From: Pseudomonadota bacterium | GTDB taxonomy: Bacteria; Pseudomonadota; Alphaproteobacteria; Rickettsiales; SXRF01 | Length of the DNA: 58,409 bases | Direction of reading: 5' to 3' | Assembly (NCBI GenBank): GCA_028873525.1 | Contig: JAGWIM010000003.1 | Coordinates: forward strand, 1-58,409 | Shown here: positions 1,530 to 53,923 of the stretch, one piece after another | Layout: each line of letters begins with the position of its first letter | How positions within the stretch are numbered: the stretch's first letter is position 1 | Notes under the pieces: model-generated | The model's input: only the letters and a program-made list of their open reading frames with translations | Database searches by the model: none | What the model was told of the DNA's origin: nothing | Translations under genes and position numbers: made by a program

Positions 1530-2102
1530 TTATCGTAATTTTGCGGTTTTATCAAGCCGGATGATATCGGCCAACTCCCGCCACACTTCCTCTTTCCAAA
1601 ATCTCCGCGCACGGCCCGACGTTGAGCACAGCACATAAAATTGCGTGTCGTTCAGCGTTTCATTTTGCAGCCCGTATTCCACCTTATGGCCGAAATAAAT
1701 TGAGGCGGCGTTTTTGCTGGTGAAGGCGACGAGCTTTGGTTTATAACGGCGGATTTTTTTCTTGAGTGCCTCGCGCTCGAGCGCTTCCGGCGGCAATTCA
1801 TCGTCGTTGCCGGAGCAGGTTTTGCATAAATCGGTCAGTCCGATGCCGAGCGACAGCAGCTTGGGATATTCCTGCGGATGAAAGAGTCGCGGCGTCAGGC
1901 GCACGCGGTGCAGCGCGTGCCAGAACTGGTTGCCGGGATTGGCGTAATAGGCTTTCTCGCGCGCCGAGATGCGGCTTGGCGCCGTGCCGCAGAATACAAG
2001 GCGCAATTCCGATTGCAGTAAATCAGGAACTATAGGTGCTCTGCGCCGGATGTCAGATGTCAGATGCCGGATGTTAGAAATGTGTTTTCTTTTATTTGAC
2101 AT
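1530..2102 (-). CDS. mug: G/U mismatch-specific uracil-DNA glycosylase (Mug/TDG family)
   Basis: LRLVFCGTAPSRISAREKAYYANPGNQFWHALH motif; N-terminal ~20 aa come from a palindromic element. Confidence 0.88.
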   Translation of the reverse strand: MSNKRKHISNIRHLTSDIRRRAPIVPDLLQSELRLVFCGTAPSRISAREKAYYANPGNQFWHALHRVRLTPRLFHPQEYPKLLSLGIGLTDLCKTCSGNDDELPPEALEREALKKKIRRYKPKLVAFTSKNAASIYFGHKVEYGLQNETLNDTQFYVLCSTSGRARRFWKEEVWRELADIIRLDKTAKLR

Positions 2103-2130
2103 CTAACATCTGTTATCTGGCATCCGGCGC
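2043..2130. repeat. palindromic element, tandem-arm family (F3), mug/lhgO junction
   Basis: Outer arms GCGCCGGATG (2043-2052) / CATCCGGCGC (2121-2130); inner arms are iterated ~10-mers (gatgtcagatgtcagatgccggatgttag / catctaacatctgttatctggcatc). Confidence 0.85.
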
Positions 2131-3309
2131 GAAGCGGCTTACAATCCACTCGGCAAACGGAAAACTCGAAGTGAAGGCCGGTGAAACGGCATTGAGGACG
2201 TGGACGCTTTTTGCGTCGCCCTCGACGACAAAATCATGCAGCAGCTTCAGCGTGCGCTTGTCGAATAATTGTGCGCGAATGCCGGGGCGCATCCAGGTGG
2301 AAAAGCGTTTGGCATCGAGGTGTTTCACCATCAGTGCCGCCTGCTGCGCCATGTAATGCTTTGAGTATTTTTTCATTTCGCTCATCGCGAGTGAGCGAAA
2401 ATCGGCATTGAGTGCGAACATCATCGCCTCGCGGCCGAGGATTTCCACCATATCGCGCGGGGAAAACCCGTTCACGCCGCGATAATTCTCGCGCCAGAAG
2501 GCGGGAATTGCCGTCGGGCCGATTTTCACCGTGCCGTCCACCGTGACGCTGAAATGCACGCCGAGGAAAGGATTGCGCAAATTCGGCACGGGATAAATGC
2601 AGGGTTTGGCCGGTGTGTCCGCGCCTTCGTATTTGAGATAGACGCCCTTGAACGGGATGATGCCGTAATCGCGGCAAAAGCCGAAATCCCGCGCGATGCG
2701 GTCGGCATAAAGCCCGGCGCAATTGATAATCATCCCGGCCTCGAAGCGTTGCCCGCCGGCGACGATGCCATTGTCGCCGAAGCGGTATTCATAGGCCGTG
2801 CCGGTGAGGATGCTGACACCGTGCGTTTCCATTTCGCGTTTCAGCGTGTTGCATACTTCGATGGGATCGACGACGGCGGTGGTCGGCGAATAAATCGCCT
2901 GGCCGGCGGTTCTGGCGTTCGGCTCGATGGCGGCCAGATCTTTTTCGTCAATGAGCTTCAGCGTTACGCCGTTAGCCTGCCCGCGCCGGTAAAGCTCGCG
3001 CAGCGCTTCCAATTCCTTTTCATTTTTTGCCACCACAATCTTGCCGCAATCGTTGATGCGAAGTTTGTGTTCGGCCACATATGCCCGCAGCGCCTTATTG
3101 CCGTCGCGGCAGAATTTCGCTTTCAGCGAATCGGCGGCGTAGTAAAATCCGGCGTGCAGCACGCCGCTGTTGCGCCCGCTGGCGTGATGGGCCACGCCGC
3201 TTTCTTTTTCAATCAGGGTAATCGAGGCATCCTTATGGCGCGCCCGCAGGCTGCGCGCTACCGCCAGCCCCATGATGCCGCCGCCAATGATGAGGTAATC
3301 GGAATTCAT
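2113..3309 (-). CDS. lhgO: L-2-hydroxyglutarate oxidase family FAD protein
   Basis: DYLIIGGGIMGLAVARSL dinucleotide-binding motif, HHASGRNSGVLHAGFYY. Confidence 0.9.
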   Translation of the reverse strand: MNSDYLIIGGGIMGLAVARSLRARHKDASITLIEKESGVAHHASGRNSGVLHAGFYYAADSLKAKFCRDGNKALRAYVAEHKLRINDCGKIVVAKNEKELEALRELYRRGQANGVTLKLIDEKDLAAIEPNARTAGQAIYSPTTAVVDPIEVCNTLKREMETHGVSILTGTAYEYRFGDNGIVAGGQRFEAGMIINCAGLYADRIARDFGFCRDYGIIPFKGVYLKYEGADTPAKPCIYPVPNLRNPFLGVHFSVTVDGTVKIGPTAIPAFWRENYRGVNGFSPRDMVEILGREAMMFALNADFRSLAMSEMKKYSKHYMAQQAALMVKHLDAKRFSTWMRPGIRAQLFDKRTLKLLHDFVVEGDAKSVHVLNAVSPAFTSSFPFAEWIVSRFAPDAR

Positions 3310-3414
3310 CTCAAGACTCTGCTACGCTGGATTAAACCGTTTCGTTTTCTGCGCTTCTTGAAAACCTCGCCCTTAATCTCAGCGTAGCGAGTTTTAAAAT
3401 GAATTCTATGTATT

Positions 3415-3888
3415 TTAAACGTAGGCGATCGACAACACTTCGTAGCTTTTCTGGCCGCCGGGCGTACTGACCTCGATGCTGTCGCCTTTTTTCTTGCCGA
3501 TGAGCGCGCGCGCCAGCGGGGCGGTGATGGAGATTTTTTTGGCTTTGAGGTCGGCCTCGTATTCACCGACGATCTGGTAGCTCGTTTCATCGCCGCTTTC
3601 CTCGTCGGCGAGCTTTACCGTCGCGCCGAATTTGACGCTGTCGTTCGTAAGCGATTTGATGTCGATGATTTCGGCGCGCGAGACTTTGTCCTCCAGCTCA
3701 TTGATGCGGCCTTCGGTGAAGGACTGTTTTTCCTTGGCGGCGTGATACTCGGCGTTTTCCGACAGGTCGCCGTGCGCCCGCGCCTCGGCGATGGCGGCGA
3801 TAATGGCCGGCCGCTCTACCGATTTCAGGTTTTTGAGTTCCGCCTCCATGCGGGCGTAACCCGCCGCGGTGATGGGAAGTTTGTCCAT
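3415..3888 (-). CDS. greA: transcription elongation factor GreA
   Basis: [53 protein letters not shown]; start moved in from the ORF start at 3936. Confidence 0.95.
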
Positions 3889-4213
3889 AGATTTTACACA
3901 ATAAAAAAAATGCACCCGCGCTTCTGGTGCAGGCATAATATGCAGGCAAGCTAGAAAGATATAGCCGATTCGTCAAGGCTTAGAGAGCAAGGTATTGAAA
4001 AGATTGTTTAATACAGATAGCCCATTTCAGGCGCCTTCCTGTGATAAAGCATTTGGCTGATTGTGGAGTAGATATTAGTAATAGGCTCTTGCATCAGGTA
4101 ATACATTCGCAACCTGAAACCGCTGAGACGTTGATTCGATGGGGTGCAAGTGTAAAAGGTAGGCGTACTCGGGGCAATAACATAGATGGTCATACGACGT
4201 AGCCAGCATCATC

Positions 4214-7200
4214 CTATAAATCCTTAAACGCTTGCTCATCTTCGTCGGATAGCCATTCCCCGGCCAAGGTTTGCTCCACCGCAGTTAAGTAGTCGCGTTC
4301 TTCAGATTGCTCTGCGAAATAATCCTGTATCGGCTTTACGTCAAGCCCGTCGCTGCTGCTTACGGCTTCGATGGCCTGGGTGCAGGCGCGGGCGCCGGCC
4401 ACCGTGGTGTAATAGGAGATTTTGTTAAGGAGCGCCGTGCGGCGGATGGAGAAGGAATCGGCGATGGATTCGCCGCCCTCAGTGGTGTTGATAACCAGCG
4501 CGATTTTATTGTCTTTCAGCATGTCCACAATGTGCGGCCGCCCCTCGCGCACTTTGTTGACCACCCCGACATCGAGTCCCTGGGTTTGCAGGTAGGCCGC
4601 CGTGCCGCGCGTGGCGACGACCGAAAAGCCCATTGCTAATAATTTTTTGACAGCGGGCGCAACCTGCGGCTTGTCCGATTCCTTGACAGAAACAAATACG
4701 CATCCGCTTTGCGGGATCGTGCCGCCTGCCGAAAGTTGCGACTTGGCAAAAGCGCGCGGGAAATCGCGGTCGATGCCCATTGCCTCGCCGGTCGATTTCA
4801 TCTCCGGCCCGAGGATGACGTCCACCCCCGGAAACCGCGCGAAGGGAAAGACGGATTCCTTCACACTTACGTGTGAAGAGGTTGACAGTTGACAGTTGTC
4901 AGTTGTCAGATCTTTTCCTGTTAGCTGACGACTGATAACTGATAACCGTTCTCCGGCCATCACCCTTGCCGCGATCTTGGCCACCGGAACGCCGGTCGCT
5001 TTAGCCACGAAAGGCACGGTGCGGCTGGCACGCGGATTCACTTCGATGAGGTAAACCTCATTATCCTTGATGGCGAATTGCACATTCATCAGCCCGATGA
5101 CTTTAAGCGCCCGCGCCAGCGCTTTGGTCTGCCGTTTTACTTCGGCAATGATGTCTTCACTCAGCGAGTAAGGCGGCAAGCTGCAGGCCGAATCGCCGGA
5201 ATGGATGCCCGCTTCCTCGATATGCTGCATGATGCCGGCAACGAACACATCCTTGCCGTCTGAGAGGCAGTCGACGTCCAGCTCGGTGGCGTCCTGCAGA
5301 TAGGAGTCGATCAATATCGGCCCGTCGCCGAACATTTTGGCGAGTTCCTCGACATAGATTTCCAGCGACGGCTTGTCGTACATGATTTTCATGGCACGGC
5401 CGCCCAGTACGTACGATGGCCGCACCAGCAGCGGGAAACCAATGTTGTCTGCCTGTTTCACCACTTCCTGCGCAGTGGTGCCTATGGCGCTTTTCGGTTG
5501 CTTCAGTTTCAGCTTGTCGACCAGTTTGCGGAAGCGGTCGCGATCCTCGGCGAGGTCGATGGAATCGGGCGAGGTGCCGATGATGATGTCCTTGCCGAAC
5601 TCTTTTTCCAATGGCCGCGCCAGCTTCAGCGGCGTCTGCCCGCCGAACTGCACGATGACGCCTTTGAGCTTTCCGTTTTTCTTCTCGGTGCGGATGATTT
5701 CAAACACATCCTCCGCCGTCAGCGGCTCGAAATAAAGCCGGTCGGAAGTGTCATAATCGGTAGAGACGGTTTCCGGGTTGCAGTTAACCATGATGGTTTC
5801 GTAGCCCGCCTCTTTGAGCGCATAGGCCGCGTGCACGCAGCAATAATCGAACTCGATGCCCTGGCCGATGCGGTTCGGCCCGCCGCCTAAGATGATGATT
5901 TTTTCCTTATCCGTCGGCTCGGATTCGCATTCGCCATGCTCATAGGTCGAATACATATACGGCGTCTGCGAATCGAATTCCGCCGCGCAAGTATCGACGC
6001 GCTTGTAGACGGGGTGGATGTCCAGCTTGTCGCGCAGCTTGGCAATATCTCCGGTCTTGCAGCCGCATAACCCGGCAATGCGGGCATCAGAAAATCCCAT
6101 GCGCTTCCAACGATATAATTCGTCATTCCCGCGAAGGCGGGGAGCCGGTCGTGAATGGCTTCCCGCCTTCGCGGGAATGACGGCTTTAATTTCTTTTTCC
6201 GTCGCCACAATCTCTGCAATCTGCCTCACGAACCACGGATCATATTTCGTGATGGCGCAGATTTCTTCTACGCCAAGTCCCATGCGCAATGCCTGCGCGG
6301 CGACCAGCAACCGGTCGGGCGTCGGGCGTCCGAGTTTCGAGCGGGCGTCATCCATGTCTTTCAGCGGCACTTCGTCGAGTCCCGTCAGCCCGGTTTCCAG
6401 CGAGCGCAGCGCCTTCTGCAACGACTCCTGGAAATTGCGTCCCATCGCCATCGCTTCGCCCACCGATTTCATGGAGGTGGTGAGAATCGGCTCGGCGCCG
6501 GGGAATTTCTCGAAGGTGAAGCGCGGGATTTTGGTGACGATGTAATCAATGGTCGGCTCGAAGCTGGCGGGCGTGGCGCCGCCGGTGATGTCATTTTTAA
6601 TCTCATCGAGCGTGTAGCCGACCGCCAGCTTGGCTGCCACCTTGGCGATGGGAAATCCCGTGGCTTTACTGGCCAGCGCCGACGAGCGAGACACGCGCGG
6701 ATTCATCTCGATGACGACCATCCTGCCGTCCTTGGGGTTTACGGCGAACTGCACGTTGCTGCCGCCGGTATCGACGCCGATTTCGCGCAAGACCGCGAAC
6801 GATGCGTCGCGCATAATCTGGTATTCCTTGTCGGTCAGCGTGAGCGCGGGCGCGACGGTAATCGAATCGCCGGTATGCACGCCCATCGGGTCGATGTTTT
6901 CAATCGAGCAGACAATGATGCAGTTGTCGGCTTTGTCGCGCACCACTTCCATCTCGTATTCCTTCCAGCCCAGCACCGACTCGTCGATCAACACCTCGCC
7001 GATGGGCGATGCGTCCAGCCCGCTGACTACAATCTGCTCGAATTCCTCGCGGTTATAGGCGATGCCGCCGCCGGCGCCGCCCATGGTGAAGCTCGGGCGG
7101 ATGATGGCGGGAAGCCCCACTCTTTCTAATGCCCTGCGTGCTTCGTCCATGGACTTGACCACGGCGTTTTTGGGAACGCAGAGGCCGATTTTGTTCATCG

Positions 7201-7603
7201 CCCGGTTGAATAATTCGCGGTCTTCGGCCTTGTTGATCGATTCCAGCCGCGCGCCGATGAGTTCGACATTATATTTTCTCAGCACGCCGGATTCGGCCAG
7301 CGCCTTGGCGCAGTTCAGCGCCGTTTGCCCGCCCATGGTGGGAAGCAGTGCGTCGGGTTTTTCCCTGGCGATGATTTTTTCCACCATTTCCGGCGTGATT
7401 GGCTCGATGTAGGTGGCGTCGGCCAGCTCCGGGTCGGTCATGATGGTGGCCGGGTTGGAATTGACCAGCACGACGCGGTACCCCTCGGCCTTCAGGGTTT
7501 TGACCGCCTGCGTACCCGAATAATCGAACTCGCAGGCCTGACCGATGACAATCGGCCCGGCGCCGATGACGAGGATGGAGTTGATGTCAGTTCTTTTTGG
7601 CAT
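4214..7603 (-). CDS. carB: carbamoyl-phosphate synthase large subunit with two in-frame repeat-derived inserts
   Basis: [33 protein letters not shown]...; start moved to 7603; inserts at ~6121-6182 and ~4881-4946. Confidence 0.97.
4881..4946. repeat. palindromic element, tandem-arm family (F3), inside carB
   Basis: Arms gttgacagttgtcagttgtcag (4888-4909) / ctgacgactgataactgataac (4925-4946), 18/22 complementary. Confidence 0.85.
6121..6182. repeat. palindromic element, family F1 (cattcccgcgaaggcggg), inside carB
   Basis: Perfect 21-bp inverted repeat CGTCATTCCCGCGAAGGCGGG ... CCCGCCTTCGCGGGAATGACG, 20-nt loop. Confidence 0.95.
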
Positions 7604-8078: not shown

Positions 8079-9273
8079 GGCGCGTCTCCATCATCTTCAC
8101 AAAATTATCGAACAGATATTGGCTGTCATGCGGCCCCGGCGAGGATTCAGGGTGGTATTGCACGGCGAGGACGGGCTTGTCGGTGCAGCGCAGGCCTTCG
8201 ACCGTGCCGTCGAACAGCGAAACATGTGTGACCTTCACGTTTTTCGGCAGACTTTTTTCGACCACCGCGAAGCCGTGATTCTGGCTGGTGATTTCGACCG
8301 CGCCGGTCTCCAGGTTTTTCACCGGCTGGTTGGCTCCGCGATGGCCTTGCTTCAGCTTCTCCGTTTTGCCGCCGAGCGCCAGCCCCAATAATTGGTGGCC
8401 GAGGCAGATGCCGAATACCGGCGTGCCGGAGGCGATGATTTTTTGCAATATGGGCACGGCGTATTTCCCCGTGGCCGCTGGATCGCCCGGGCCGTTGGAA
8501 AGGAACACGCCGTCCGGCTTCAGCGTCAAAATTTCTTCGGCGGAAGTCTGCGCCGGAACCACCGTCACCTTGCATCCGCGCTCGGCGAGGCTGCGCAGGA
8601 TATTCAATTTTTCGCCGTAATCGATGGCGACCACTCTATATCCCCCTCTCCCTTGAGGGGGGAGAGTTGGGGTGGGGGTGAGATGCCAGAGACCCTCACT
8701 CCATTCATAAGGTTTTTTTGTCGTGACGGTTTTTGCTAAATCTAATCCCGTCATATCTGGATGCGATTTCAACTTGGCCTTAATTTCCGCCAATTCATCC
8801 CCTCCCGGCGCTTTTGCGCCGAACTCCCCCCTCAAGGGGGAGGTGAAAGAAAGGATCGCCGCATTCTGCGCGCCGTGCTTGCGGATGTGCCGCGTCAGCG
8901 CCCGCGTATCGACGCCGCAGATGCCGGGCAAGCGATGGCGCTTGAGCCATTCTTCAAGAGAAATTTGGCTGCGGAAACTCGAGGGCGGGGTAGGGCGCTC
9001 GCGCAGCACCAGCCCGGCGCAGAACGGTCGCACCGCTTCGATATCCTCGTCGTTGCAGCCGATATTGCCGATATGCGGGAAGGTGAAGGTGATGATCTGC
9101 CCGGCGTAAGACGGATCGGTCAGCGTTTCCTGGTAACCGGTCATGCCGGTGTTGAAGCAGATTTCGCCGATGCCCATTTCTTCCGCGCCGATGCCTTGCC
9201 CGGAAAACACCGTCCCATCCGCCAATAATAAACAGGCACTCACATGGTCCGGAATCGGGGGATGGCTGGACAT
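8071..9273 (-). CDS. carA: carbamoyl-phosphate synthase small subunit with two in-frame repeat-derived inserts
   Basis: ACLLLADGTVFSGQGIG, FGICLGHQLLGLALGG, VQYHPESSPGPHDS; inserts SFTSPLRGEFGAKAPGGDE and LTPTPTLPPQGRGG. Confidence 0.96.
   Translation of the reverse strand: MSSHPPIPDHVSACLLLADGTVFSGQGIGAEEMGIGEICFNTGMTGYQETLTDPSYAGQIITFTFPHIGNIGCNDEDIEAVRPFCAGLVLRERPTPPSSFRSQISLEEWLKRHRLPGICGVDTRALTRHIRKHGAQNAAILSFTSPLRGEFGAKAPGGDELAEIKAKLKSHPDMTGLDLAKTVTTKKPYEWSEGLWHLTPTPTLPPQGRGGYRVVAIDYGEKLNILRSLAERGCKVTVVPAQTSAEEILTLKPDGVFLSNGPGDPAATGKYAVPILQKIIASGTPVFGICLGHQLLGLALGGKTEKLKQGHRGANQPVKNLETGAVEITSQNHGFAVVEKSLPKNVKVTHVSLFDGTVEGLRCTDKPVLAVQYHPESSPGPHDSQYLFDNFVKMMETRHA
8638..8682. repeat. palindromic element, family F2 (tcccctctcccttgaggg), inside carA linker
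   Basis: tatccccctctcccttgaggggggagagttggggtgggggtgag. Confidence 0.82.
8797..8850. repeat. palindromic element, family F2 composite, inside carA
   Basis: ccccctcaaggggg plus nested ggcgcttttgcgcc. Confidence 0.82.
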
Positions 9274-10783: not shown

Positions 10784-11158
10784 ATGAGCATAATTCAGAG
10801 TAACAAATTGAATAACAATGCTATAGATGAAAATTGTTTTCATCGTCTGGCGGATGCGGCGCTGACGGTTTTGTTCGATGCGCTGGAAAAAGCGGACCGT
10901 AACGGGACGCTGGACGTGGAATATGCAGATGGCGTCATGACCATCAGCCTTCCTTCCGGCCAGCAATATATCGTCAACAAGCATATGGCCAGCCGCCAGA
11001 TATGGTTGTCATCGCCAAAAAGCGGTGGGTTGCACTTCAACTATATCCCCCTCCCGCAAGCGGGGGGATTAGAAAATTGGTCGTTGTCCGACGGGCGTGG
11101 ATTGCCGGATGTATTATTTGCCGAACTGCAGGCCGCAACCGGCGAGAAGTTCACATGA
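10784..11158 (+). CDS. cyaY: frataxin-like iron donor protein CyaY with a small repeat-derived insert
   Basis: GTLDVEYADGVMTISLPSGQQYIVNKHMASRQIWLSSPKSGGLHFNY; insert IPLPQAGGL. Confidence 0.85.
   Translation: MSIIQSNKLNNNAIDENCFHRLADAALTVLFDALEKADRNGTLDVEYADGVMTISLPSGQQYIVNKHMASRQIWLSSPKSGGLHFNYIPLPQAGGLENWSLSDGRGLPDVLFAELQAATGEKFT
11042..11072. repeat. degenerate F2 element inside cyaY
   Basis: tatatccccctcccgcaagcggggggattag. Confidence 0.7.
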
Positions 11159-12981
11159 GGCGGCGGCGCAATGGGGCAGAAGAAAGCCGGGCCGATCTGA
11201 AGCAGCTTAAATCGCTCAAGCGGTATTTCAGGCCATACCGCGGGCAAATTGCCGCTGCCATAGCCGCGCTGGTCATCACCTCTGGCGCCGTGCTCGGCAT
11301 GGGCGGCGCGCTGCGCTACCTGATTGATGAAGGCATTGGCCGCGGCGACGTGCGTCTGCTCAACCGCTCCTTTATCATCGCGCTGGGCGTGGTGGCGCTG
11401 CTGGCGGTCGCCTCATATGCGCGGCTGTTCCTGGTGGCATGGCTGGGCGAAAAAGTCGTCGCCGACATCAGGCGCGATGTGTACCGCAAGCTGGTCTCCA
11501 TGCATATGGGGTTTTTCGAAAAGGCCAGAACCGGCGAGTTGCTGTCGCGCCTGACCACCGACACCACGCTGCTGCAAACCGTTATCACCGGCTCAGCCTC
11601 GATGGCGCTCAGGAATGCCATCATGCTGTTCGGCGGTTGCGCCATGCTGCTCGTTACCAGCCCGCACCTGACCGCTTATATACTGCTGCTGGTGCCGCTG
11701 GTGGTCGTGCCGATTATTATGCTGGGGCGGCGGGTGCGCCGTCACTCGCGCGAGACGCAGGACCGCGTCGCCGACATCAGCGCGCAGGGCGAGGAAACGC
11801 TCTACGGCATCCGCACCATCCAGGCCTTCGCGCTGGAGGAGTATGAAACCCAGCGGTTCGAGCAGGTGATTCAGCGTGTATTGCGCGCCGGATTTTCGCG
11901 CATCCGCACCAAGGCGCTGCTGACCTCGGTGGTGATTTCGCTGGTGTTCGGTGCCATCATGGGCGTGCTGTGGATGGGCGGGCGCGACGTGCTGGCGGGG
12001 CGCATGACCTCCGGCGATCTTTCCGCCTTCGTGTTTTATTCGGCGATCATGGCCGGCGCCATCGGCGGCTTAAGCGATGTGATGGGCGACTTGCACCGTG
12101 CCGCCGGTTCCGCCGAGCGTCTGGGCGAGTTGCTTTCCATGGAACCGCTTATTGCTTCACCCTCCTCCGTTCGGGGGGAGGGTTGGGGTGGAGGTGGCCC
12201 TGCGCAGGATGCCCCCTCCCTTACCCTCCCCCCCGCAGGGGGAGGGGAAATCGCCTTTTCCCACCTCTCCTTCATCTATCCGGCGCGTCCTGACAAACCG
12301 GCGGTTCATGATTTCAACCTCGATGTCGCCTCGGGGCAGACGATTGCGCTGGTTGGACCGTCGGGCGCCGGAAAGTCCACTATTTTCCAGTTGCTGCTGC
12401 GGTTTTACGATCCGACCGGCGGCACCATTCTCTTAAACGGCATTGATTTGCGCCAGTGGCCTTTGCCGGAATTGCGCGGGTTGATCGGCATTGTGCCGCA
12501 GGACCCGATTATTTTTTCCGGCACGGCGCGTGAAAATATCCGCCTCGGCAACATCCGCGCGACCGACGAGGAAGTGATGCAGGCGGCGCGCGCCGCCTCG
12601 GCGCTGGAGTTTCTGGAAAAGCTGCCGTACGGGCCGGACAGCTATCTCGGCGAGAAAGGCGTGCAGCTTTCGGGCGGGCAGAAGCAGCGCATCGCCATCG
12701 CCCGCGCCGTCATCCGTAACCCGCGGCTGCTCTTGCTCGACGAGGCGACCAGCGCGCTCGACTCCGAGAATGAATTGTACATCCGGCAGGCGTTGGAAGA
12801 ATTGATGCAGGGGCGCACCACTTTCGTTATTGCCCACCGCTTATCCACCATCGTCCGGGCCGACCGAATCGTACTCATGAACGAAGGCTATATCGAGGCC
12901 ACTGGCACGCACCGGGAGCTTCTGGCTGACAGCCCGCTCTACCGCCGTTTGGCGGAATTACAATTCAAAACAGATAGTTAG
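11155..12981 (+). CDS. ABC exporter, fused permease/ATPase, MsbA-like
   Basis: GPSGAGKST, LSGGQKQRIAIARAV, LLLDEATSALD; ATGA overlap with cyaY; repeat-derived TMD-NBD linker. Confidence 0.93.
   Translation: MRRRRNGAEESRADLKQLKSLKRYFRPYRGQIAAAIAALVITSGAVLGMGGALRYLIDEGIGRGDVRLLNRSFIIALGVVALLAVASYARLFLVAWLGEKVVADIRRDVYRKLVSMHMGFFEKARTGELLSRLTTDTTLLQTVITGSASMALRNAIMLFGGCAMLLVTSPHLTAYILLLVPLVVVPIIMLGRRVRRHSRETQDRVADISAQGEETLYGIRTIQAFALEEYETQRFEQVIQRVLRAGFSRIRTKALLTSVVISLVFGAIMGVLWMGGRDVLAGRMTSGDLSAFVFYSAIMAGAIGGLSDVMGDLHRAAGSAERLGELLSMEPLIASPSSVRGEGWGGGGPAQDAPSLTLPPAGGGEIAFSHLSFIYPARPDKPAVHDFNLDVASGQTIALVGPSGAGKSTIFQLLLRFYDPTGGTILLNGIDLRQWPLPELRGLIGIVPQDPIIFSGTARENIRLGNIRATDEEVMQAARAASALEFLEKLPYGPDSYLGEKGVQLSGGQKQRIAIARAVIRNPRLLLLDEATSALDSENELYIRQALEELMQGRTTFVIAHRLSTIVRADRIVLMNEGYIEATGTHRELLADSPLYRRLAELQFKTDS
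12154..12250. repeat. composite F2 element inside the ABC exporter gene
   Basis: caccctcctccgttcggggggagggttggggtggagg ... gccccctcccttaccctccccccccgcagggggagggga. Confidence 0.85.
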
Positions 12982-17274: not shown

Positions 17275-18984
17275 TTATTCCTTTTCCAACAGCACGTTCC
17301 TGCCATATGAGGCCACCTCGCGCAGCCGGCAGGCAGCGGGCATTTTCAGCGTATCGCGCGTGGTGTTTTTCATCAGCGCGTAAACAGGGTGTTTCGCGTT
17401 CGCGCAGCGCCGCCAGAACTCCTTGTCGGTAATCATCCATTCATGCGTTTCGGGATAATGCGCGTAGCCGAATTCCAGCTCTCCTGTATACCCGGCGACG
17501 CTGACATTGCGGTTTAAGTACACCGGCACGTCCTGGAAATAGCCGCCGTACATCACCAGCATGTCGCCGGGTTTCAGGCGGTCTTTGAGGAAATCGGCCA
17601 GCGGCCTGGCGCTGGCGCGGTCAACGTCGCCGACGATATAATTAGCGCTGAGTCCCACCACTGCGCCGAACAGCGCCAGCGCCATGATGAGTACCTTCGC
17701 GGAATAGCGCCGCAGCGCCACATGGAGAAGCCCGATTAAAGCAAGGGTTAGTGGAATAAGCATCCACGGCAGGATGTCACGCCCCACCGCCAGCTTGCGA
17801 TCCTCGCCGCCCGGCAGCGGCATGATATAATGCAGCACGCCATACGCCGCCAGTAGCGCGCCGAACAGTGCTGCGACGAAGAAGATGTTTCGACGCAGAG
17901 GTTGCGCCGTCACCTGTCCCTGCCAGGCCTCGGCGAGATATTTCCCGATGGCAATGCAAAGCGGCGGGAAAATAGGCAGTATATAGGCCGCCAGCTTGGA
18001 ATGCGACGCCGAGAAAAAGAGCAGCGGCAGAAGAATCCAAAGGAGGAGGAAAAAAGTGTCACCTCGCACTTGCTTGTCCGCCGTAGCTTTAGCGAAGGGG
18101 GATTGCGGAGTCTCTTTCCATGTTACCAGCCCCCGCAATGAATGCGGGGCTGTAAACGTCCACGGCAGGAGGCCGGCCAGCGTGATGGCGATGAAGAACC
18201 ACCACGGCTTGTCGCGCTTGGCCTCGTTGGTCAGGAAGCGCTCGAAATGCTCGTGGACGATATAAAAATCGAAAAACGCCGGATGCGCGCGCATCATAAG
18301 CACGTGCCACGGCACGGCGATAATCAGAAAAATAACCAGGCCGGTGAACAGGCGTGCTTCACGCAAAATACGCCAGCTTTTTGTCGTGGCGATCCATGCG
18401 CTGATGACCAATCCCGGGATGACCATGCCGATTAAGCCTTTGGAGAGTACCGCCAGCGCTGCGGCGGGATACATGAGCAAATAAAAATTTCGCTTTCGTT
18501 TTCCCTCGGTATGCTGTGCTGCCATGAAACAAGCGAGGCAGGCGGTGATGAACAGGCTGACCGGCATGTCCACCATCGCCACGCGGCTTAAGGTATAGCC
18601 GAAAGCGCAGGTCGCCAGCACCAGCGCCGCCTGCAATCCGGCGGGACGCCCGTAAAGCATCCGGCCGGCAGCGAAGGTGATGGTGCAAAGCAGCGCCGCC
18701 ATGATGGCGGTGGTGATGCGCCCGGCGAATTCGCCGGCGCCGAGAAACTGCATGACCGACGCCTGCATCCAGTAAAAGAGCGGCGGTTTTTCAAAGTAAG
18801 GCACGCCGTTGATGCGCGGCGTCAGCCAGTCATGCGTCGCCAGCATTTGCCGCGGCACCTCGATATAGCGCGCTTCGCTGGGCGTAAGGTAAGGCCGCGC
18901 GCCGAGGCCGATGCAGAAAAAAATCAGCGCGGCCAGAAACACCCATGTCATGTCGCGCCGTACGGCGTGTGCTTTATTTTGCAT
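17275..18984 (-). CDS. ArnT/PMT-like GT39 membrane glycosyltransferase with repeat-derived insert(s)
   Basis: RPYLTPSEARYIEVPRQMLATHDWLTPRINGVPYFEKPPLFYW; multi-TM; insert ETPQSPFAKATADKQVRGDT. Confidence 0.9.
   Translation of the reverse strand: MQNKAHAVRRDMTWVFLAALIFFCIGLGARPYLTPSEARYIEVPRQMLATHDWLTPRINGVPYFEKPPLFYWMQASVMQFLGAGEFAGRITTAIMAALLCTITFAAGRMLYGRPAGLQAALVLATCAFGYTLSRVAMVDMPVSLFITACLACFMAAQHTEGKRKRNFYLLMYPAAALAVLSKGLIGMVIPGLVISAWIATTKSWRILREARLFTGLVIFLIIAVPWHVLMMRAHPAFFDFYIVHEHFERFLTNEAKRDKPWWFFIAITLAGLLPWTFTAPHSLRGLVTWKETPQSPFAKATADKQVRGDTFFLLLWILLPLLFFSASHSKLAAYILPIFPPLCIAIGKYLAEAWQGQVTAQPLRRNIFFVAALFGALLAAYGVLHYIMPLPGGEDRKLAVGRDILPWMLIPLTLALIGLLHVALRRYSAKVLIMALALFGAVVGLSANYIVGDVDRASARPLADFLKDRLKPGDMLVMYGGYFQDVPVYLNRNVSVAGYTGELEFGYAHYPETHEWMITDKEFWRRCANAKHPVYALMKNTTRDTLKMPAACRLREVASYGRNVLLEKE
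18068..18103. repeat. palindromic element F4 inside the arnT-like gene
   Basis: cttgcttgtccgccgtagctttagcgaagggggat; encodes SPFAKATADKQVR on the minus strand. Confidence 0.72.
18128..18151. repeat. short palindrome inside the arnT-like gene
   Basis: agcccccgca-atgaa-tgcggggct. Confidence 0.55.
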
Positions 18985-20188: not shown

Positions 20189-20245
20189 ACCGGCGCGGAT
20201 TCACAATAAGGGGACAACATGACATTAAGGGGCGGAAACATCAGG

Positions 20246-20309
20246 GGATGACCCGTAACCGGATGGCCGGGTTTTTCTGGTCATCAGGTTATCCGGTGAC
20301 GGGTCATCC
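20246..20309. repeat. palindromic element between divergent MFS and ABC permease genes
   Basis: ggatgacccgtaaccggatg ... catcaggttatccggtgacgggtcatcc. Confidence 0.8.
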
Positions 20310-20330
20310 GCTGTTATAGGGAGGACGGCC

Positions 20331-25970: not shown

Positions 25971-25972
25971 TT

Positions 25973-26050
25973 CGTCATTCCCGCGAAGGCGGGGGTCTAC
26001 TCGCATTAATTTTATATAGCAGACGGCTTCCTGCCCACGCGGGGATGACG
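25973..26050. repeat. F1 palindromic element, typA-uvrB spacer
   Basis: cgtcattcccgcgaaggcggg ... cctgcccacgcggggatgacg. Confidence 0.9.
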
Positions 26051-26096
26051 ATTGTACGCCCTTGTGGTGTAACTCTTTGCACCTTATATATAAACC

Positions 26097-30672: not shown

Positions 30673-30674
30673 TT

Positions 30675-30779
30675 GTCATCCCCGCGCAGGCGGGGATCCA
30701 GCAAAGCGCCATGGGCGCGGTATGGTTCTTTCTGCGCCGCAGACGCGGCGCACTGGATTCCCGCTTTCGCGGGAATGAC
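30675..30779. repeat. F1 palindromic element upstream of rnd
   Basis: gtcatccccgcgcaggcggggatccag ... ctggattcccgctttcgcgggaatgac, with nested inner palindrome. Confidence 0.93.
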
Positions 30780-30842
30780 AGTAAGGGAACAAGCAACCAT
30801 GCCGGAGTTATAATGACCCGGCGGCGGAAAGGCCAGCGCTAA

Positions 30843-37375: not shown

Positions 37376-38209
37376 TTAAACTTTTTCCCCCGCCACCATA
37401 TAATTTACGCCCAAATCCTTTGCATCTACTCGCCATTGGCCGTCCAGCGGATTAAAAACCATCCCGGTCATTTCGGTGATTTCGATATTATTGCGCCGCA
37501 ACGCATTCACCAACTCGTGCGGGCGCAGGAATTTCTTCCAGTCATGTGTGCCGCGCGGCAGCCAGCGCAACACATATTCGGCGCCGACGATGGCCAGCGC
37601 AAAAGATTTAGCCGTGCGGTTGAGCGTCGAATAAAATATCAGGCCGCCGGGCTTGACCAGCGCCGCGCTCGCAGCCACGAACGCTTCCACATCGGCGACG
37701 TGCTCAATGATCTCGAGGGCGAGAACGATATCGAAAGGAAGTGGAAAGTGGGAGGTGGAAGGTGAATGGTGCGCCGGTTTTTTTTCACCGTCCACTTTCC
37801 AGCGTCCACCGTCCACCATTTCCTCCGCGGTGGTGCATATATAATCAACCTCCAGCCCGGCCTGTCTGGCATGAAGTTTGGCGGCGGCGATGTTTTCCGC
37901 CGAAGCATCAATGCCGGTAACTTCCGCGCCCAGCCGCGCCATCGGTTCGCAGATGAGGCCGCCGCCGCAACCGATGTCCAGAAGGCGGATGCCTTCCAGA
38001 ATTGGCAGTCGGCAATTATCGGTTGTCAATTTTTTTACTGATAACCGTGAACCATCGACTGGTAACTGATTCAATATATATTGAATCCGCACCGGGTTCA
38101 TCCGGTGCAGCGGCGCAAACGCGCCGTGCTCGTCCCACCACTGGTCGGCCAGCCGCGAGAATTTATCGACTTCCACGGCGTCAACGGTTGTATTGTGCGG
38201 TCGTTTCAT
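37376..38209 (-). CDS. ubiG: ubiquinone biosynthesis O-methyltransferase with two in-frame repeat-derived inserts
   Basis: TVDAVEVDKFSRLADQWWDEHGAFAPLHRMNPVRIQYI; LLDIGCGGGLICEPMARLGAEVTGIDAS. Confidence 0.93.
   Translation of the reverse strand: MKRPHNTTVDAVEVDKFSRLADQWWDEHGAFAPLHRMNPVRIQYILNQLPVDGSRLSVKKLTTDNCRLPILEGIRLLDIGCGGGLICEPMARLGAEVTGIDASAENIAAAKLHARQAGLEVDYICTTAEEMVDGGRWKVDGEKKPAHHSPSTSHFPLPFDIVLALEIIEHVADVEAFVAASAALVKPGGLIFYSTLNRTAKSFALAIVGAEYVLRWLPRGTHDWKKFLRPHELVNALRRNNIEITEMTGMVFNPLDGQWRVDAKDLGVNYMVAGEKV
37741..37816. repeat. tandem-arm palindromic element (F3) inside ubiG
   Basis: gtggaaagtgggaggtggaaggtga ... tcaccgtccactttccagcgtccaccgtccac. Confidence 0.85.
38004..38070. 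repeat. tandem-arm palindromic element (F3) inside ubiG, same family as 4881-4946
   Basis: ggcagtcggcaattatcggttgtcaa ... actgataaccgtgaaccatcgactggtaactg. Confidence 0.8.
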
Positions 38210-41060: not shown

Positions 41061-42149
41061 ATGACATCATTACAGGACAAAATTACAGGAGAATCCTGCG
41101 CTGGCGCTCCGCGCTCCGCAGGATTGAAAAGCCTCTGGTCTCGCGGCATCGATTTCTTCGGCTGCGAATACGCCATCATGGGCGGGGCGATGTCGTGGGT
41201 GTCGGAGCGCAACTTGGTTGCAGCGCTGTCGAACGCCGGGGCGTTCGGCGTCATTGCCTGCAGCGCCATGACGCCGGAATTGCTCGATAAGGAAATTACG
41301 GAGACGAAGAAGCTGCTTACTTCTCCCTCCCACAAGGGAGGAGGGGATAAGAGGTCTTTCGGCGTCAACCTCATCATCATGCACCCGAAAATGGACGAGC
41401 TGATCGAAGTGTGCAAAAAACACTATGTGTCGCATGTGGTGCTGGCCGGTGGCATTCCGAAGGATAGCTGGATCAAGGCCATCAAAGCATACGGCGCGAA
41501 GGTCATCTGCTTTGCGCCCTCGGCTATTATCGCGCGCAAACTCATCCGCCTCGGCGCCGATGCCATCGTCATCGAGGGAATGGAGGCGGGTGGCCATATC
41601 GGGCCGGTGTCCACCTCGGTGCTGGCGCAGGAGATTCTACCGGTCATCCGCGAAGTGCCGGTGTTTGTGGCCGGCGGCATCGGGCGCGGCGAGGCGATGG
41701 CGGCGTACCTGGAAATGGGCGCGTCCGGCGTGCAGCTTGGCACGCGGTTTGTCTGCGCCACCGAATCCATCGCCCATGCGAAATTCAAAGAGGCCTTCAT
41801 CCGCGCGGCCGCGCGCGACGCGCAGCCCTCGGTGCAGCTTGACCCGGATTTCCCGGTGATTCCGGTGCGCGCCGTCGTCAACAAGGCGACCGATGCGTTT
41901 GCGCGGATGCAGTATGAAGTCATCGCCGAATTCCGCGGCGGCAAGATCGACAAGAAAGAAGCGCAGCTTAAAATCGAGCATTTCTGGGCGGGAGCGCTCC
42001 GTCGCGCCGTCATTGACGGCGATGTCGAGCATGGCTCGGTCATGGCCGGACAGAGCGTTGGTATGGTGATAAAAATTCAGCCGCTTAAGGAAATCCTGGA
42101 GGAGCTGATCGGGCAGGCGGAAGCCTATCTCGACGCCCACCGATCATGA
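41061..42149 (+). CDS. nitronate monooxygenase family protein with repeat-derived inserts
   Basis: EYAIMGGAMSWVSERNLVAALSNAG; VIEGMEAGGHIG; GGIGRGEAMAAYLEMGASGVQLGTRF. Confidence 0.9.
   Translation: MTSLQDKITGESCAGAPRSAGLKSLWSRGIDFFGCEYAIMGGAMSWVSERNLVAALSNAGAFGVIACSAMTPELLDKEITETKKLLTSPSHKGGGDKRSFGVNLIIMHPKMDELIEVCKKHYVSHVVLAGGIPKDSWIKAIKAYGAKVICFAPSAIIARKLIRLGADAIVIEGMEAGGHIGPVSTSVLAQEILPVIREVPVFVAGGIGRGEAMAAYLEMGASGVQLGTRFVCATESIAHAKFKEAFIRAAARDAQPSVQLDPDFPVIPVRAVVNKATDAFARMQYEVIAEFRGGKIDKKEAQLKIEHFWAGALRRAVIDGDVEHGSVMAGQSVGMVIKIQPLKEILEELIGQAEAYLDAHRS
41092..41125. repeat. palindrome inside the N-terminal codons of the nitronate monooxygenase gene
   Basis: AATCCTGCG ... CGCAGGATT with internal ggcgctccgcgct. 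Confidence 0.65.
41319..41356. repeat. F2 palindromic element inside the nitronate monooxygenase gene
   Basis: acttctccctcccacaagggaggaggggataagagg. Confidence 0.82.
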
Positions 42150-43980: not shown

Positions 43981-45322
43981 ACTCCAGCCTGTCCGTGGTA
44001 CGCACGATATTCTGCCGGAGGAATTCGAGAAATTTCATGCCGTAGTGACGCGCGCGCGCGAACTCGCCACGCTTTATGGTTTTCGCGAAATGGCCACGCC
44101 GATTTTCGAGCAGACGGAAGTATTCTCGCGCTCGATGGGTGAAACCTCCGATGTGGTGAGCAAGGAAATGTTCACCTTTCCAACCAAGGGCGAGGAAAGC
44201 GTTACGCTCAGGCCGGAATTCACGGCGGGAATTGTTCGCGCGTTTTTATCAAACGGGATGCAGCAGCATCTGCCGCTCAAACTCTTTTCCACCGGCCCGC
44301 TGTTCCGCTACGAGCGCCCGCAGAAAGGCCGCCAGCGCCAATTTCATCAGGTGAATTTTGAGTATTTTGGATATGATAGTCCTGCCGCTGATGTTGAAAC
44401 AATCTGCCTTGCCGGACATTTATTATATTCTTTATCCGGAAAGACTGGTTGCACTTTGCTCATTAACACGCTTGGTGATAAAGAAAGCAGAGAAAAATAT
44501 CGTAACGCGCTCGTAGATTATCTTACGCCATATGCTAAGGACATGTCGGAAGACAGCCAACGCCGCCTTGTCAGCAATCCGCTGCGTATTCTCGATTCCA
44601 AGAGCGAGCAGGATAAAAAAATCATTCACGATGCGCCAAAGATCACCGATTATCTAAGCAGCAGTGCAAAAACTCGTTTTGATTTTGTGTGTGAGACATT
44701 AAGCAAAATGCCGGCTATGCAACCTATGAAGGTAAGCCCGTCATTGGTGCGAGGATTGGATTATTATACCGATACCATATTTGAGTTTGTTGCCGAGACA
44801 GGGGAATTAGGTACGCAGAATACGGTACTGGCAGGCGGCAGATACGATGGATTAGTCGAGCAACTGGGTGGAAATTCTGTGCCTGCCATTGGTTTCGCCG
44901 CAGGCATTGAGCGGTTGCTCCTCCTTACTAAAACTCTTGAGTGGGATAATGTACGGCAACTTAAAATCATGATTCTGCCGTTTGAAGCAGTATTGCCGGA
45001 AGCAACGCTTATGATTGCCGCAATTCTGCGCAATGAACTCTACGCGCATCAAAGAAAAACGAATCTGAAATGGAAATTTACTGTAGAGTCTTTATGGCAA
45101 GGCAATCTTAAGAAGCGCATGGAAAGGGCAGCGCAGCGAAATGCGGATTATGTGATTATTTTAGGGCCAGAAGAAGTTTCTCGCGATGCATGCGTTGTCA
45201 AAAATATGAAAACAGGCAAGCAGGAAGAAGTAAGCCTTGCTAACCTTAAAGATGAGAACAAGCTCATCGAGTTATTTAATATAACACAGGATCCCGGCTT
45301 TCGCCGGAATGACGAGAAATAA
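43970..45322 (+). CDS. hisS: histidyl-tRNA synthetase with repeat-derived C-terminus
   Basis: [57 protein letters not shown]. Confidence 0.96.
45289..45317. repeat. half F1-like element forming the hisS 3' end
   Basis: aggatcccggctttcgccggaatgacgag. Confidence 0.7.
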
Positions 45323-46393: not shown

Positions 46394-46394
46394 A

Positions 46395-47321
46395 ATGGCA
46401 TGTAATTCCCCTTTGCAATCGGCGCCGGTTTCTGCTAGAGAGGCTGTGCGCGACGCGGTGATGGCCCTGCAGCGGGCCGGTGTCGAAACCGCGTCGCTGG
46501 ATGCACGGGTGCTGTTGGAATACGTGCTTGGCGCAAGCCGCGAGGAGTTACTCGCCGCGATGGATGTGCCGATCGATGACAGCCAGAATGCCGCGTACCG
46601 CGAATTGGTGAAAAAACGTGCACGGCGCTGTCCGGTGTCGCAGCTTACCGGTCGGCGGGAGTTCTGGGGGCTGACGTTTAAGGTGACGGCGGATACGCTC
46701 GATCCGCGCCCTGACAGCGAAACGCTGGTCGAGGCGGTGCTCGAAGCCGTGGAGGGTGGAACGTGGAACGTGAAACGAGATAATGTTTTGCCACGCGCCA
46801 CGCGCCATATGCCGCAAACCATTCTTGATTTGGGAACCGGAACGGGTTGCCTGCTGATCGCATTGTTGAGGGAATGTAAAAATGCAGAAGGAATTGGCGT
46901 GGATTTGAGTGATGCAGCAATCGCCGTAGCGCGCGAAAATGCCGCTGCCCTGGGGGTCGGTAATCGTGCCCGCTTCATCGCCGGTAACTGGAACGCGCCG
47001 CTTGACGGGAGATTCGACAGTATACTTTCCAATCCGCCCTATATTCCCACCGGGGAGATTGCCACGCTGGCGCCGGAAGTGGCGCAGCATGAGCCGAAAC
47101 TGGCGCTCGACGGCGGCGCCGATGGGCTGGACGCCTACCGTGCCATCCTGCCGCGACTTTCAGGATTGCTGGCGGAACGTGGCCGCGCATTTCTCGAAAT
47201 CGGCAAGGGGCAGGAGGAAGATGTAATTACGCTGGCGCGGCAGAGTGGGCTTGCCGCCCTTGGCGTGAAACAGGATTTAGGCGGTGTGACGCGGTGCGTC
47301 ATGCTGGCTATGCAAAACTAA
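46395..47321 (+). CDS. prmC: release factor glutamine methyltransferase with in-frame repeat-derived insert
   Basis: ILDLGTGTGCLLIALL; ILSNPPYIPTGEI (NPPY). Confidence 0.94.
   Translation: MACNSPLQSAPVSAREAVRDAVMALQRAGVETASLDARVLLEYVLGASREELLAAMDVPIDDSQNAAYRELVKKRARRCPVSQLTGRREFWGLTFKVTADTLDPRPDSETLVEAVLEAVEGGTWNVKRDNVLPRATRHMPQTILDLGTGTGCLLIALLRECKNAEGIGVDLSDAAIAVARENAAALGVGNRARFIAGNWNAPLDGRFDSILSNPPYIPTGEIATLAPEVAQHEPKLALDGGADGLDAYRAILPRLSGLLAERGRAFLEIGKGQEEDVITLARQSGLAALGVKQDLGGVTRCVMLAMQN
46752..46812. repeat. heptamer-arm palindromic element inside prmC
   Basis: (tggaacg)(tggaacg)tgaaacg ... gc(cacgcgc)(cacgcgc)cat. Confidence 0.75.
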
Positions 47322-47342
47322 CCATCAACCAATGGAGTGACA

Positions 47343-48146: not shown

Positions 48147-49044
48147 GGGCTTGTTTAATCCCCAGCAAACAACTCTCGCCATTCAGGCATTCCTTGGCCA
48201 GCGTGGCGGTGAGCAGGCCGAAGGGCAGCGCCATTTGTAATTTCAATGGCATCAGTTTGGCGTCATCGCTGAAATATATGTAAAGAGTCGGGTCGTCCGG
48301 CCCGAAACCCGCTAATTCCTTCCTGGTGAAACCCGCCAGCGGTTTGCGCCGCGCCGCCACTGCGATGACCGGCAGTTTGCCAGTCCCATAGAAAATAATC
48401 TTTTTGCCGAGTATGATGAAATCGGCCTCGCTTAGCCGGTTGCCGTCATAGACGTTTATAAAAAATTCCTCCCTCCCCCTGTGGGAGGGGGTTAGGGGGC
48501 GGGGGTCTCTTATTGAAGAAGCCCCCTCTCCCCGACCCTCCCCCCCAGGGGTGGAGGGAGCAGTACGCGCTTCCTGCAATTTTTCCCGCGCCTCGATGAT
48601 AAGGCTTAAGGGATCCACCGCGTTTTTCAGTATCGCCGCCGGTACGGCCGGGCGCGTGACGTGGTTCTCCGGCGGGATTTGCGTTTCCTGCACGCGCCCG
48701 TTTTTCCTCACCAGCCGGATGTAGTGTTTTTTGCCTCGCGTCTGGTAATGCGTTTCGTATTCGATGGCCGGATAAATGAAATGCTCTCCGCTGGCTTCTG
48801 TCGTTGAATGGCTCTGGTGCTTGACGAAGAGCCTGAGCAGCCCGCTGGTGGTGATGTCGGCGGCGACGGCGTAATGGCCTGGCGTCTGCTCGATGTCGAT
48901 GCCCATCTTGCCGATGGGGATGCCGGAGAAGGTGCAGATATAGATGCCCTTGAAATTGATCGGGCTTCCCGCCTCGCCGGCTAGGGCAGGGCAGGATAAC
49001 AACATGAGAACGAGGGTGTTGAAAAAATAGTGTTTCATAGCCAT
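48118..49044 (-). CDS. DUF3108-like secreted protein with in-frame repeat-derived insert
   Basis: Signal peptide MAMKHYFFNTLVLMLLSCPALA; FKGIYICTFSGIPIGKMGIDIEQ. Confidence 0.75.
   Translation of the reverse strand: MAMKHYFFNTLVLMLLSCPALAGEAGSPINFKGIYICTFSGIPIGKMGIDIEQTPGHYAVAADITTSGLLRLFVKHQSHSTTEASGEHFIYPAIEYETHYQTRGKKHYIRLVRKNGRVQETQIPPENHVTRPAVPAAILKNAVDPLSLIIEAREKLQEARTAPSTPGGEGRGEGASSIRDPRPLTPSHRGREEFFINVYDGNRLSEADFIILGKKIIFYGTGKLPVIAVAARRKPLAGFTRKELAGFGPDDPTLYIYFSDDAKLMPLKLQMALPFGLLTATLAKECLNGESCLLGIKQAPNSAMGSKR
48467..48562. repeat. composite F2 element inside the DUF3108-like gene
   Basis: ttcctccctccccctgtgggagggggttagggggcggggg ... gccccctctccccgaccctcccccccaggggtggaggga. Confidence 0.85.
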
Positions 49045-49148: not shown

Positions 49149-51745
<2,597 letters not shown>

Positions 51746-51749
<4 letters not shown>

Positions 51750-53095: not shown

Positions 53096-53128
53096 CGCGA
53101 TACTTCAACTCCTTGAAGCATTTACTGT

Positions 53129-53155
53129 AATCATCGGCGAGCCGATGATTTTTCC
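53129..53155 (+). promoter_or_regulatory. hairpin plus short T-run in the long rpsL upstream region (leader hairpin or attenuator candidate)
   Basis: AATCATCGGC-GA-GCCGATGATT followed by TTT. Confidence 0.4.
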
Positions 53156-53447
53156 TAGGCGATTGCCACCGTCATGCCAATCATAAAAACGCCGTCTCCA
53201 TTTTTTTGTTTCCTGTTCGTACTTTTAGCTTGACGCGACAGCACGCTGACATTAAGTTACGCGCCTCGCTGATAAGGGCGATACTGCCATTCCAGCCTGT
53301 GTACGCCCAAAAGGTTACTAAAGGCTTAATGGCAAGTCCCCGTATTAGCGGTACTTTTTTTACGTTTCTTTAGTCGGCGGTTGTCGCTCCGCGCTGCGGG
53401 ATGAAGCTGCCTCTTAAAAACGAACCTGAATAGATAAGGACTCTATA

Positions 53448-53819
53448 ATGCCGACCATTAACCAGTTGGTCCGCGGTGGCCGCCGTTCCGTTGCCAGGCG
53501 CGACAAGGTGCCGGCGCTGGAAAAATGCCCGCAGAAACGCGGCGTGTGCACGCAGGTCAAGACCACGACGCCCAAGAAACCGAACTCGGCGTTGCGTAAA
53601 GTCGCCAAGGTGCGTTTTACCAACGGGTTCGAAGCGTTCTGTTATATTCCCGGCGAAGGCCATAACCTGCAGGAACACAGCGTGGTGCTGATCCGCGGCG
53701 GCCGCGTGAAGGATTTGCCCGGCGTGCGCTATCACATCATTCGCGGCACGCTCGATACCCAGGGTGTCAAGAACCGCAAGCAATCGCGCTCGGCTTACGG
53801 CGCGAAGAGACCGAAGTGA
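53448..53819 (+). CDS. rpsL: 30S ribosomal protein S12
   Basis: [15 protein letters not shown]...[29 protein letters not shown]. Confidence 0.98.
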
Positions 53820-53854
53820 TGGTAAATCCCGGCGGCGTGGCCGCTTAGGTTCCC

Positions 53855-53923
53855 GTCATCTCCGCGAAGGCGGGGATCCAGGGAAACAAAAAGGAAATGG
53901 CTTCCCGCCTGCGCGGGAATGAC
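53855..53923. repeat. F1 palindromic element in the rpsL-rpsG spacer
   Basis: gtcatctccgcgaaggcgggga ... ttcccgcctgcgcgggaatgac. Confidence 0.9.

What the first reader, a model, noticed from the sequence alone, without database searches (positions are those of the whole stretch)
2043..53923. Several unrelated palindromic-element families have invaded both spacers and conserved protein genes in this chromosome
At least four types are visible: F1 (cattcccgcgaaggcggg...), F2 (tcccctctcccttgaggg...), F3 (arms built of iterated 7-10-mers such as gttatcagttatcag) and F4 (gtccgccgtagctttagcgaag). About 13 copies lie in frame inside genes whose flanking protein sequence is normal and conserved: carA x2, carB x2, ubiG x2, cyaY, ABC exporter, arnT-like, nitronate monooxygenase, prmC, DUF3108-like. 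Rickettsia palindromic elements (RPE) are the established precedent for in-frame coding insertion, but here several families with no sequence similarity do it side by side in about 58 kb. That suggests a shared insertion or exaptation process rather than one selfish element. No mobilising enzyme (for example a RAYT/Y1 transposase) is in this window.
Basis: partly seen in the sequence, partly recalled or inferred. Interest (0 to 1): 0.92.

Follow-up and report, generated by a model that had tools for sequence, protein, structure and literature searches.

The report
Repeats rewriting loops of core proteins
In this alphaproteobacterium and its relatives, several kinds of hairpin-forming DNA repeats sit in frame inside essential genes, and the same flexible protein loops carry different repeats in different species; many are mirrored arrays of a 7-letter unit whose letters differ from copy to copy.

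Summary
Four repeat types lie in spacers and in frame inside core genes: carA, carB x2, ubiG x2, cyaY, an ABC exporter, an arnT-like gene, an NMO gene, prmC, a DUF3108 gene, plus the hisS end. About 0.6 Mb more of the genome has more cases: RuvA, UvrA, transketolase, NadE, PurL, PhaC, HisN, TrpF, RsmB, BioF, RecF.

F1 matches the described CGTC-1 REP family (Micavibrio; Rickettsia RPE-6), so in-frame palindromes are a known kind.

F3 is an architecture, not a sequence family: inverted arrays of 7-nt (sometimes 8-nt) units, with a unit largely private to each copy. I found 21 in 672 kb of this genome, 22 in 200 kb of a congener, none in 1.29 Mb of other Alphaproteobacteria, and none in shuffles.

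At six aligned protein loops (carB x2, ubiG x2, uvrA, prmC) relatives carry different repeats or none. This argues for a shared filter, tolerant surface loops hit repeatedly, rather than a shared insertion enzyme. Y1 transposase genes are absent from near-complete relatives that have F3; no reverse transcriptase was found in this genome. How F3 arises (slippage, hairpin-templated copying, dispersal) is inferred, not shown.

The parts
2043..2130 (.). F3 (unit ~GATGTCA) at the 5' end of a UDG-family gene; inside the predicted N-terminus, possibly upstream of the true start
   Evidence: both arms period 7, z 4.7/4.6
4880..4947 (-). F3 (units GTTATCA / TGTCAAC) in frame in carB, residues ~941-962
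   Evidence: longer than most relatives, period 7 z 6.7
6121..6182 (-). F1 (CGTC-1-like REP pair) in frame in carB, residues ~528-548
8633..8702 (-). F2 in carA, second site (replacement of a variable linker, net +2 aa)
   Evidence: two relatives have 7-nt-period linkers there
8799..8843 (-). F2 in carA, first site (net ~+10 aa)
11041..11068 (+). short F2 half-element in cyaY (frataxin)
12158..12246 (+). F2 pair in an ABC exporter, between TM and ATPase domains
   Evidence: 14-19 aa longer than relatives
18073..18102 (-). F4 in an arnT-like glycosyltransferase (peptide SPFAKATADKQ)
   Evidence: no orthologue alignment was made
20242..20313 (.). long palindrome with 8-nt-like units (GGATGACC), an F3-like variant, between two genes
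   Evidence: 8-nt relatives at L170 6972 and L180 18081
25972..26051 (.). F1 pair in the spacer between a TypA-like GTPase gene and uvrB
30674..30780 (.). F1 pair in a spacer
37740..37817 (-). F3 (unit ~GTGGAAA/GTGGACG) in frame in ubiG, site b
38000..38068 (-). F3 (unit ~GGTTATC) in frame in ubiG, site a
41320..41349 (+). F2 in an NMO/FabK-like gene (+10 aa against PDB relatives)
45286..45313 (+). single F1 unit supplying the hisS C-terminal tail
46754..46810 (+). F3 (units CGTGGAA / GCGCCAC) in frame in prmC
   Evidence: about 15 aa longer than all relatives except the congener G002, which has a GGTCATG-unit element at the same site
48469..48561 (-). F2 pair in a DUF3108 gene
   Evidence: no orthologue alignment was made
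53855..53923 (.). F1 pair in the spacer upstream of a 156-aa gene (53941-54411) next to the elongation factor genes

Best explanation
Several independent short repeat families spread in this lineage. F1 is a CGTC-1-like REP; F2 and F4 are other dispersed repeats; F3 is a class of inverted arrays of 7-nt (sometimes 8-nt) units. Copies that land in genes survive only where they stay open and fall in flexible surface loops, so the same loops of core proteins are colonised and overwritten again and again by different repeats. F3 arms probably grow by 7-nt slippage and are kept complementary by hairpin-templated copying, while some unit types also disperse through the genome. Shown: the positions, the 7-nt period, the diversity of units, the empty and differently occupied orthologous loops, and single-copy hosts. 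Inferred: mobility, slippage, hairpin templating, and that the filter is purifying selection.
For: Single full-length copies of carB, uvrA and ubiG carry inserts. NCBIfam models for RuvA, Tkt, NadE, PurL, HisN, TrpF, RsmB, BioF and RecF align across the inserts. Same loop, different repeat: carB-1 has F1 in own and G009, half an F1 in G001, a 7-nt array in G004; ubiG-a has four different units in four species; uvrA has F3 with three different units in own, G001 and G003, an F1-type hairpin in G004 and G009, and is empty in G005; prmC has different 7-nt units in own and G002. Best period 7 with z>3 in 18 of 24 such segments, against 0.47% of random segments from the same genomes. Periodic inverted repeats: 22 in 672 kb of own (21 of unit 7 or 8), 23 in 200 kb of G002 (22 of unit 7 or 8), 0 in 1288 kb of other Alphaproteobacteria, 0 in shuffles. 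Unit distance is 0.64 between arms and 2.94 between elements. In own about 7 of 19 seven-nt elements share an AGCGGCC-type unit, which implies dispersal. AlphaFold model of UbiG: core blocks above 90 pLDDT, both inserts about 52-69 and unstructured.
Against: No close strain pair was available, so no insertion event was seen directly; compared species are about 72-84% identical at DNA level over these genes. No target-site duplication was identified. Unit sharing within a genome argues against purely local growth; unit privacy argues against simple transposition; the combined model is less economical than either. The arm-to-arm similarity is partly built into the detector. The segments were chosen because they looked longer.
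Confidence: 0.68

Rival explanations
1. F3 segments are local microsatellites: replication slippage of 7-nt units in tolerant loops and spacers, with arms made complementary by template switching, and no mobility at all.
For: Unit sequence is nearly private to each element. Single arrays without a partner exist (ubiG-b in G009, carA-b in G004 and G015). 7-nt repeats are over-represented in bacteria and were ascribed to polymerase slippage (PMC4692102).
Against: One unit type, AGCGGCC, recurs at about seven scattered loci in own, and AACTGCC and ACTCAGC recur in G002. The inverted pairing is more regular than slippage alone would lead one to expect.
Confidence: 0.2
2. All or most of these are REPIN-like elements moved by a Y1 (RAYT/IS200) transposase.
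For: Own genome has two PF01797 pieces at contig ends C2 and C142, probably one gene. The inverted-pair layout resembles REPINs.
Against: No PF01797 match in G004 (98% complete), G007 or G011 (100%), although F3-type elements occur in G004 and G007. F1 carries the CGTC tag, and CGTC REPs are reported without a dedicated transposase (PMC3733652). By eye the own gene reads like ordinary IS200 TnpA.
Confidence: 0.1
3. One insertion machinery targets particular gene sites and puts any of the families in.
For: Different families occupy the same loop in different species.
Against: The loops are variable linkers in many relatives, so tolerance alone explains the coincidence. Families also sit in spacers. 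No common end sequence or enzyme was found.
Confidence: 0.08
4. The hairpins are kept inside genes because the RNA or DNA structure is useful (pausing, mRNA stability, supercoiling).
For: Strong predicted hairpins in the coding strand.
Against: Orthologous loops often lack them or carry unrelated sequence; arms have many mismatches.
Confidence: 0.05
5. Artefact: assembly chimeras, pseudogenes or wrong gene starts.
For: Own genome is fragmented (156 contigs); some cases (5' end of the UDG gene, F1 before BioF) may lie outside the real gene.
Against: Open frames run through long conserved proteins; independent genomes show comparable inserts at the same loops.
Confidence: 0.02

Closest known systems
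CGTC-1 REP (Di Nocera et al. 2013, PMC3733652; includes Rickettsia RPE-6 and Neisseria dRS3)
   Same: F1: CGTC tag, 8-bp stem ATTCCCGC, 4-nt loop GAAG, head-to-head pairs, some copies inside genes, no dedicated transposase; reported in Micavibrio
   Different: Nothing essential for F1. F2, F3 and F4 do not carry this consensus.
Rickettsia and Wolbachia palindromic elements (RPE/WPE; Ogata et al. 2000, 2002, 2005, as reviewed in PMC2229807)
   Same: Short palindromes in frame inside conserved proteins, tolerated by the enzyme (GMK example in the review)
   Different: Here several classes act side by side, and orthologous loops carry different classes in different relatives
Heptamer repeats: GGGNATC in Xanthomonas/Nostoc (PMC4692102), TAACTGA in Beggiatoaceae and cyanobacteria (PMC4679880)
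   Same: 7-nt tandem units, dispersed; convergent inverted pairs in Xanthomonas; some TAACTGA arrays inside ORFs
   Different: Those reports centre on one unit sequence per genome, mostly intergenic, with intragenic ones mostly at protein ends. Here there are many unit sequences per genome, largely in inverted pairs, also inside conserved domains.
REPINs with RAYT transposases
   Same: Inverted pairs of short repeats dispersed in the genome
   Different: No GTAG tag; no associated Y1 gene shown; unit sequence not conserved between copies of F3

Membership tests
CGTC-1 REP (F1) | CGTC terminal tag, 8-bp stem beginning AT, 4-nt loop | tested here: met
   6121-6182 reads CGTC-ATTCCCGC-GAAG-GCGGG...; feature list from PMC3733652
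CGTC-1 REP (F1) | predominantly head-to-head dimers | tested here: met
   21 of 45 F1 loci in the own sample hold two units within 110 nt; the window pairs read in opposite orientation. Close to half, so 'predominantly' is met only roughly.
CGTC-1 REP (F1) | no dedicated transposase beside the repeats | tested here: inconclusive
   One split Y1 gene at contig ends; its surroundings are not resolved
Rickettsia palindromic element type | in-frame insertion in conserved protein genes | tested here: met
Rickettsia palindromic element type | sequence homology to RPE-1 to RPE-8 | not tested
Heptamer repeat families (GGGNATC, TAACTGA) | 7-nt tandem unit | tested here: met
Heptamer repeat families (GGGNATC, TAACTGA) | one favoured unit sequence per genome | tested here: not met
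   mean unit distance between elements 2.94; many unit types in own and in G002
RAYT-mobilised REPIN | cognate Y1 transposase in the genome | tested here: not met
   absent from G004 and G007, which have F3-type elements; in own the link is unproven
RAYT-mobilised REPIN | GTAG tag | tested here: not met
   F1 carries CGTC; F3 has no fixed end sequence
Described Rfam RNA family | match to a curated covariance model | tested here: not met
   0 hits in the window

The most novel reading that the evidence does not exclude
This lineage has an active, unrecognised process that writes mirrored arrays of 7-nt units of arbitrary sequence into DNA, disperses them, and thereby rewrites linker loops of essential proteins at a high rate.
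Probability: 0.15. Interest if true: 0.9.

Novelty: new variant of a known kind. Interest (0 to 1): 0.7.

Why it matters
In-frame palindromes were seen as a Rickettsia and Wolbachia speciality or a REP curiosity. Here several classes fill the same protein loops differently in each species, including loops of UvrA, PrmC, UbiG and CarB, which gives a natural experiment on how nucleotide-level repeats supply new protein segments. The F3 class poses a clean question: why seven nucleotides, and what makes and spreads paired arrays whose unit differs from copy to copy? It can be tested with closely related strains.

Tried and rejected
Rfam search of the window: nothing. tRNAs: none. Reverse transcriptase as writer of the arrays: PF00078 absent in own and most relatives, present in G004, G018 and G022. 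Y1 transposase as the general mover: absent in near-complete relatives. Open-frame advantage of F3: F3 elements have fewer open frames (2.0 of 6) than random segments (3.2), so they are not specially coding-friendly. Loop signature: A/T-rich loops (GC 0.38 against 0.55 in arms; A4/T4 runs in 29 of 52 against 28% in random segments) but no shared loop sequence seen. A strict TAACTG-type inverted pattern hit only own among 398 Pseudomonadota genomes; it covers one unit type without mismatches, so it is a lower bound. The outgroup control on carB loops was thin: 16 loops at site 1 and 1 at site 2, none with period 7. Literature search for the F4 peptide: no paper. The original RPE paper (PMC186582) was not held.

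Full report
What was claimed.

The window is a whole 58,409-base contig of a 2.0 Mb, 156-contig genome. Its CarB is closest to alphaproteobacterial proteins among named genomes. F1, F2, F3 and F4 copies lie where stated. The F1 core occurs 63 times in the genome at two or fewer mismatches, with no hit for the reversed control. F2 is patchy in the family, from 0 to 83 copies per genome, and F4 is rare. Translations show the elements inside long open frames, and the host proteins carry their expected Pfam domains.

The inserts are in frame in genes that look functional. CarB and UbiG are longer than most relatives by the insert; PrmC by about 15 residues and the ABC exporter by 14-19. CarA gains about 10 and 2 residues, so its second site is a replaced linker. 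NMO gains 10 residues and CyaY about 7 against PDB relatives. carB, ubiG and uvrA each have one full-length copy in the genome.

The same happens beyond the window. In a 672 kb sample of this genome (window included), chosen largely around F1 hits, I found 45 F1, 21 F3, 6 F2 and 6 F4 loci. NCBIfam models align across inserts in RuvA, transketolase, NadE, PurL, HisN, TrpF, RsmB, BioF and RecF; UvrA was aligned with relatives. About 8 of the 21 F3 loci are inside recognisable genes.

F1 is known. It has the CGTC tag, the 8-bp ATTCCCGC stem, the GAAG loop and paired copies of the CGTC-1 REP family, which was reported in Micavibrio and corresponds to Rickettsia RPE-6 (PMC3733652). In-frame insertion of such repeats is also known (PMC3733652, PMC2229807).

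F3 is the unusual part. A detector of imperfect inverted repeats, followed by a test for a tandem period shared by both arms, found 22 periodic cases in own (19 of unit 7, 2 of unit 8, 1 of unit 6), 23 in 200 kb of a congener (18 of unit 7, 4 of unit 8, 1 of unit 13), 7 and 6 in two other family members, none in 1,288 kb of other Alphaproteobacteria, and 4 (two of unit 7) in 320 kb of other bacteria. Dinucleotide shuffles gave none. The unit differs between elements (mean distance 2.94 of 7-8 positions) but is nearly the same in both arms (0.64); the latter is partly forced by the detector. Some units recur within a genome, such as AGCGGCC in own and AACTGCC and ACTCAGC in the congener, so copies appear to disperse. 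Arm mismatches are mostly transitions and loops are A/T-rich.

The same loops are filled differently in relatives. UvrA, between VEVVS and SSKFACP: own has an AGCGGCC-type F3, G001 an ACCTGAC type, G003 a CGTCACC type, G004 and G009 an F1-type hairpin, and others nothing. UbiG site a has four different units in own, G002, G009 and G004; site b has three. CarB site 1 has F1 in own and G009, half an F1 in G001 and a 7-nt array in G004; site 2 has different 7-nt units in own, G015 and G004/G009. PrmC has different units in own and G002. The second carA site has F2 in own and 7-nt-period linkers in G004 and G015. The best period is 7 with z above 3 in 18 of 24 such segments, against 0.47% of random segments of the same genomes; the segments were picked because they looked longer or periodic, so this is a description rather than an unbiased rate.

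Mechanism. A model of UbiG keeps a confident core (pLDDT above 90) with both inserts as low-confidence loops. Tolerance of surface loops is therefore enough to explain why unrelated repeats meet at the same sites; a common enzyme is not needed. A Y1 transposase exists in own as two pieces at contig ends but not in near-complete relatives with F3, and no reverse transcriptase was found in own. I favour slippage of 7-nt units plus hairpin-templated copying between arms, plus dispersal of some copies; this last part is inference.

Limits. No strain pair was available, species compared are about 72-84% identical over these genes, and no insertion was caught in the act. The arnT-like and DUF3108 inserts were not aligned with orthologues. 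Outgroup loop controls were few. The strict pattern search over 398 genomes covers one unit type only. My impression that F2, F4 and other 7-nt repeats occur in many bacteria is from memory and was not tested.

Verdict. The shared-process reading is replaced by a shared filter. F1 is known; the F3 class and the loop turnover are a new variant of a known kind.

Noticed in passing
L035 1-150 (G000:C2 start) and L036 end (G000:C142 10326-10472): Two pieces of a Y1 transposase at contig ends, probably one IS200-like tnpA broken by the assembly; the C2 end is directly followed by a DNA-methylase-like sequence.
   Followed up: partly
G026:C1 (same order), e.g. L032: One relative genome carries 87 near-identical Y1 transposase genes, an IS200-type burst, in a 2.0 Mb chromosome.
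   Followed up: no
window 7587-8078: A 163-aa ORF with a signal-peptide-like start lies between carA and carB and overlaps the over-extended carB frame; the true carB start is near 7600.
   Followed up: no
L171 5733-5837 and the BioF gene downstream: BioF is preceded by an F1 pair and also holds an F2-like segment in frame (FPSPIGRGWRIAPGEGG...PLPGGEG).
   Followed up: partly
window 56935-56962 and 33440-33580: Diverged F4-like hairpin (GCCGTAGCTCCGAAGGAGCGAAGGC) and a diverged F1-like pair in spacers.
   Followed up: no
L226 10156-10242 and L188 11504-11570: Two inverted arrays with 9-nt units (GTAGGTTGC type) in G009 and G004, so unit length is not always 7 or 8.
   Followed up: no
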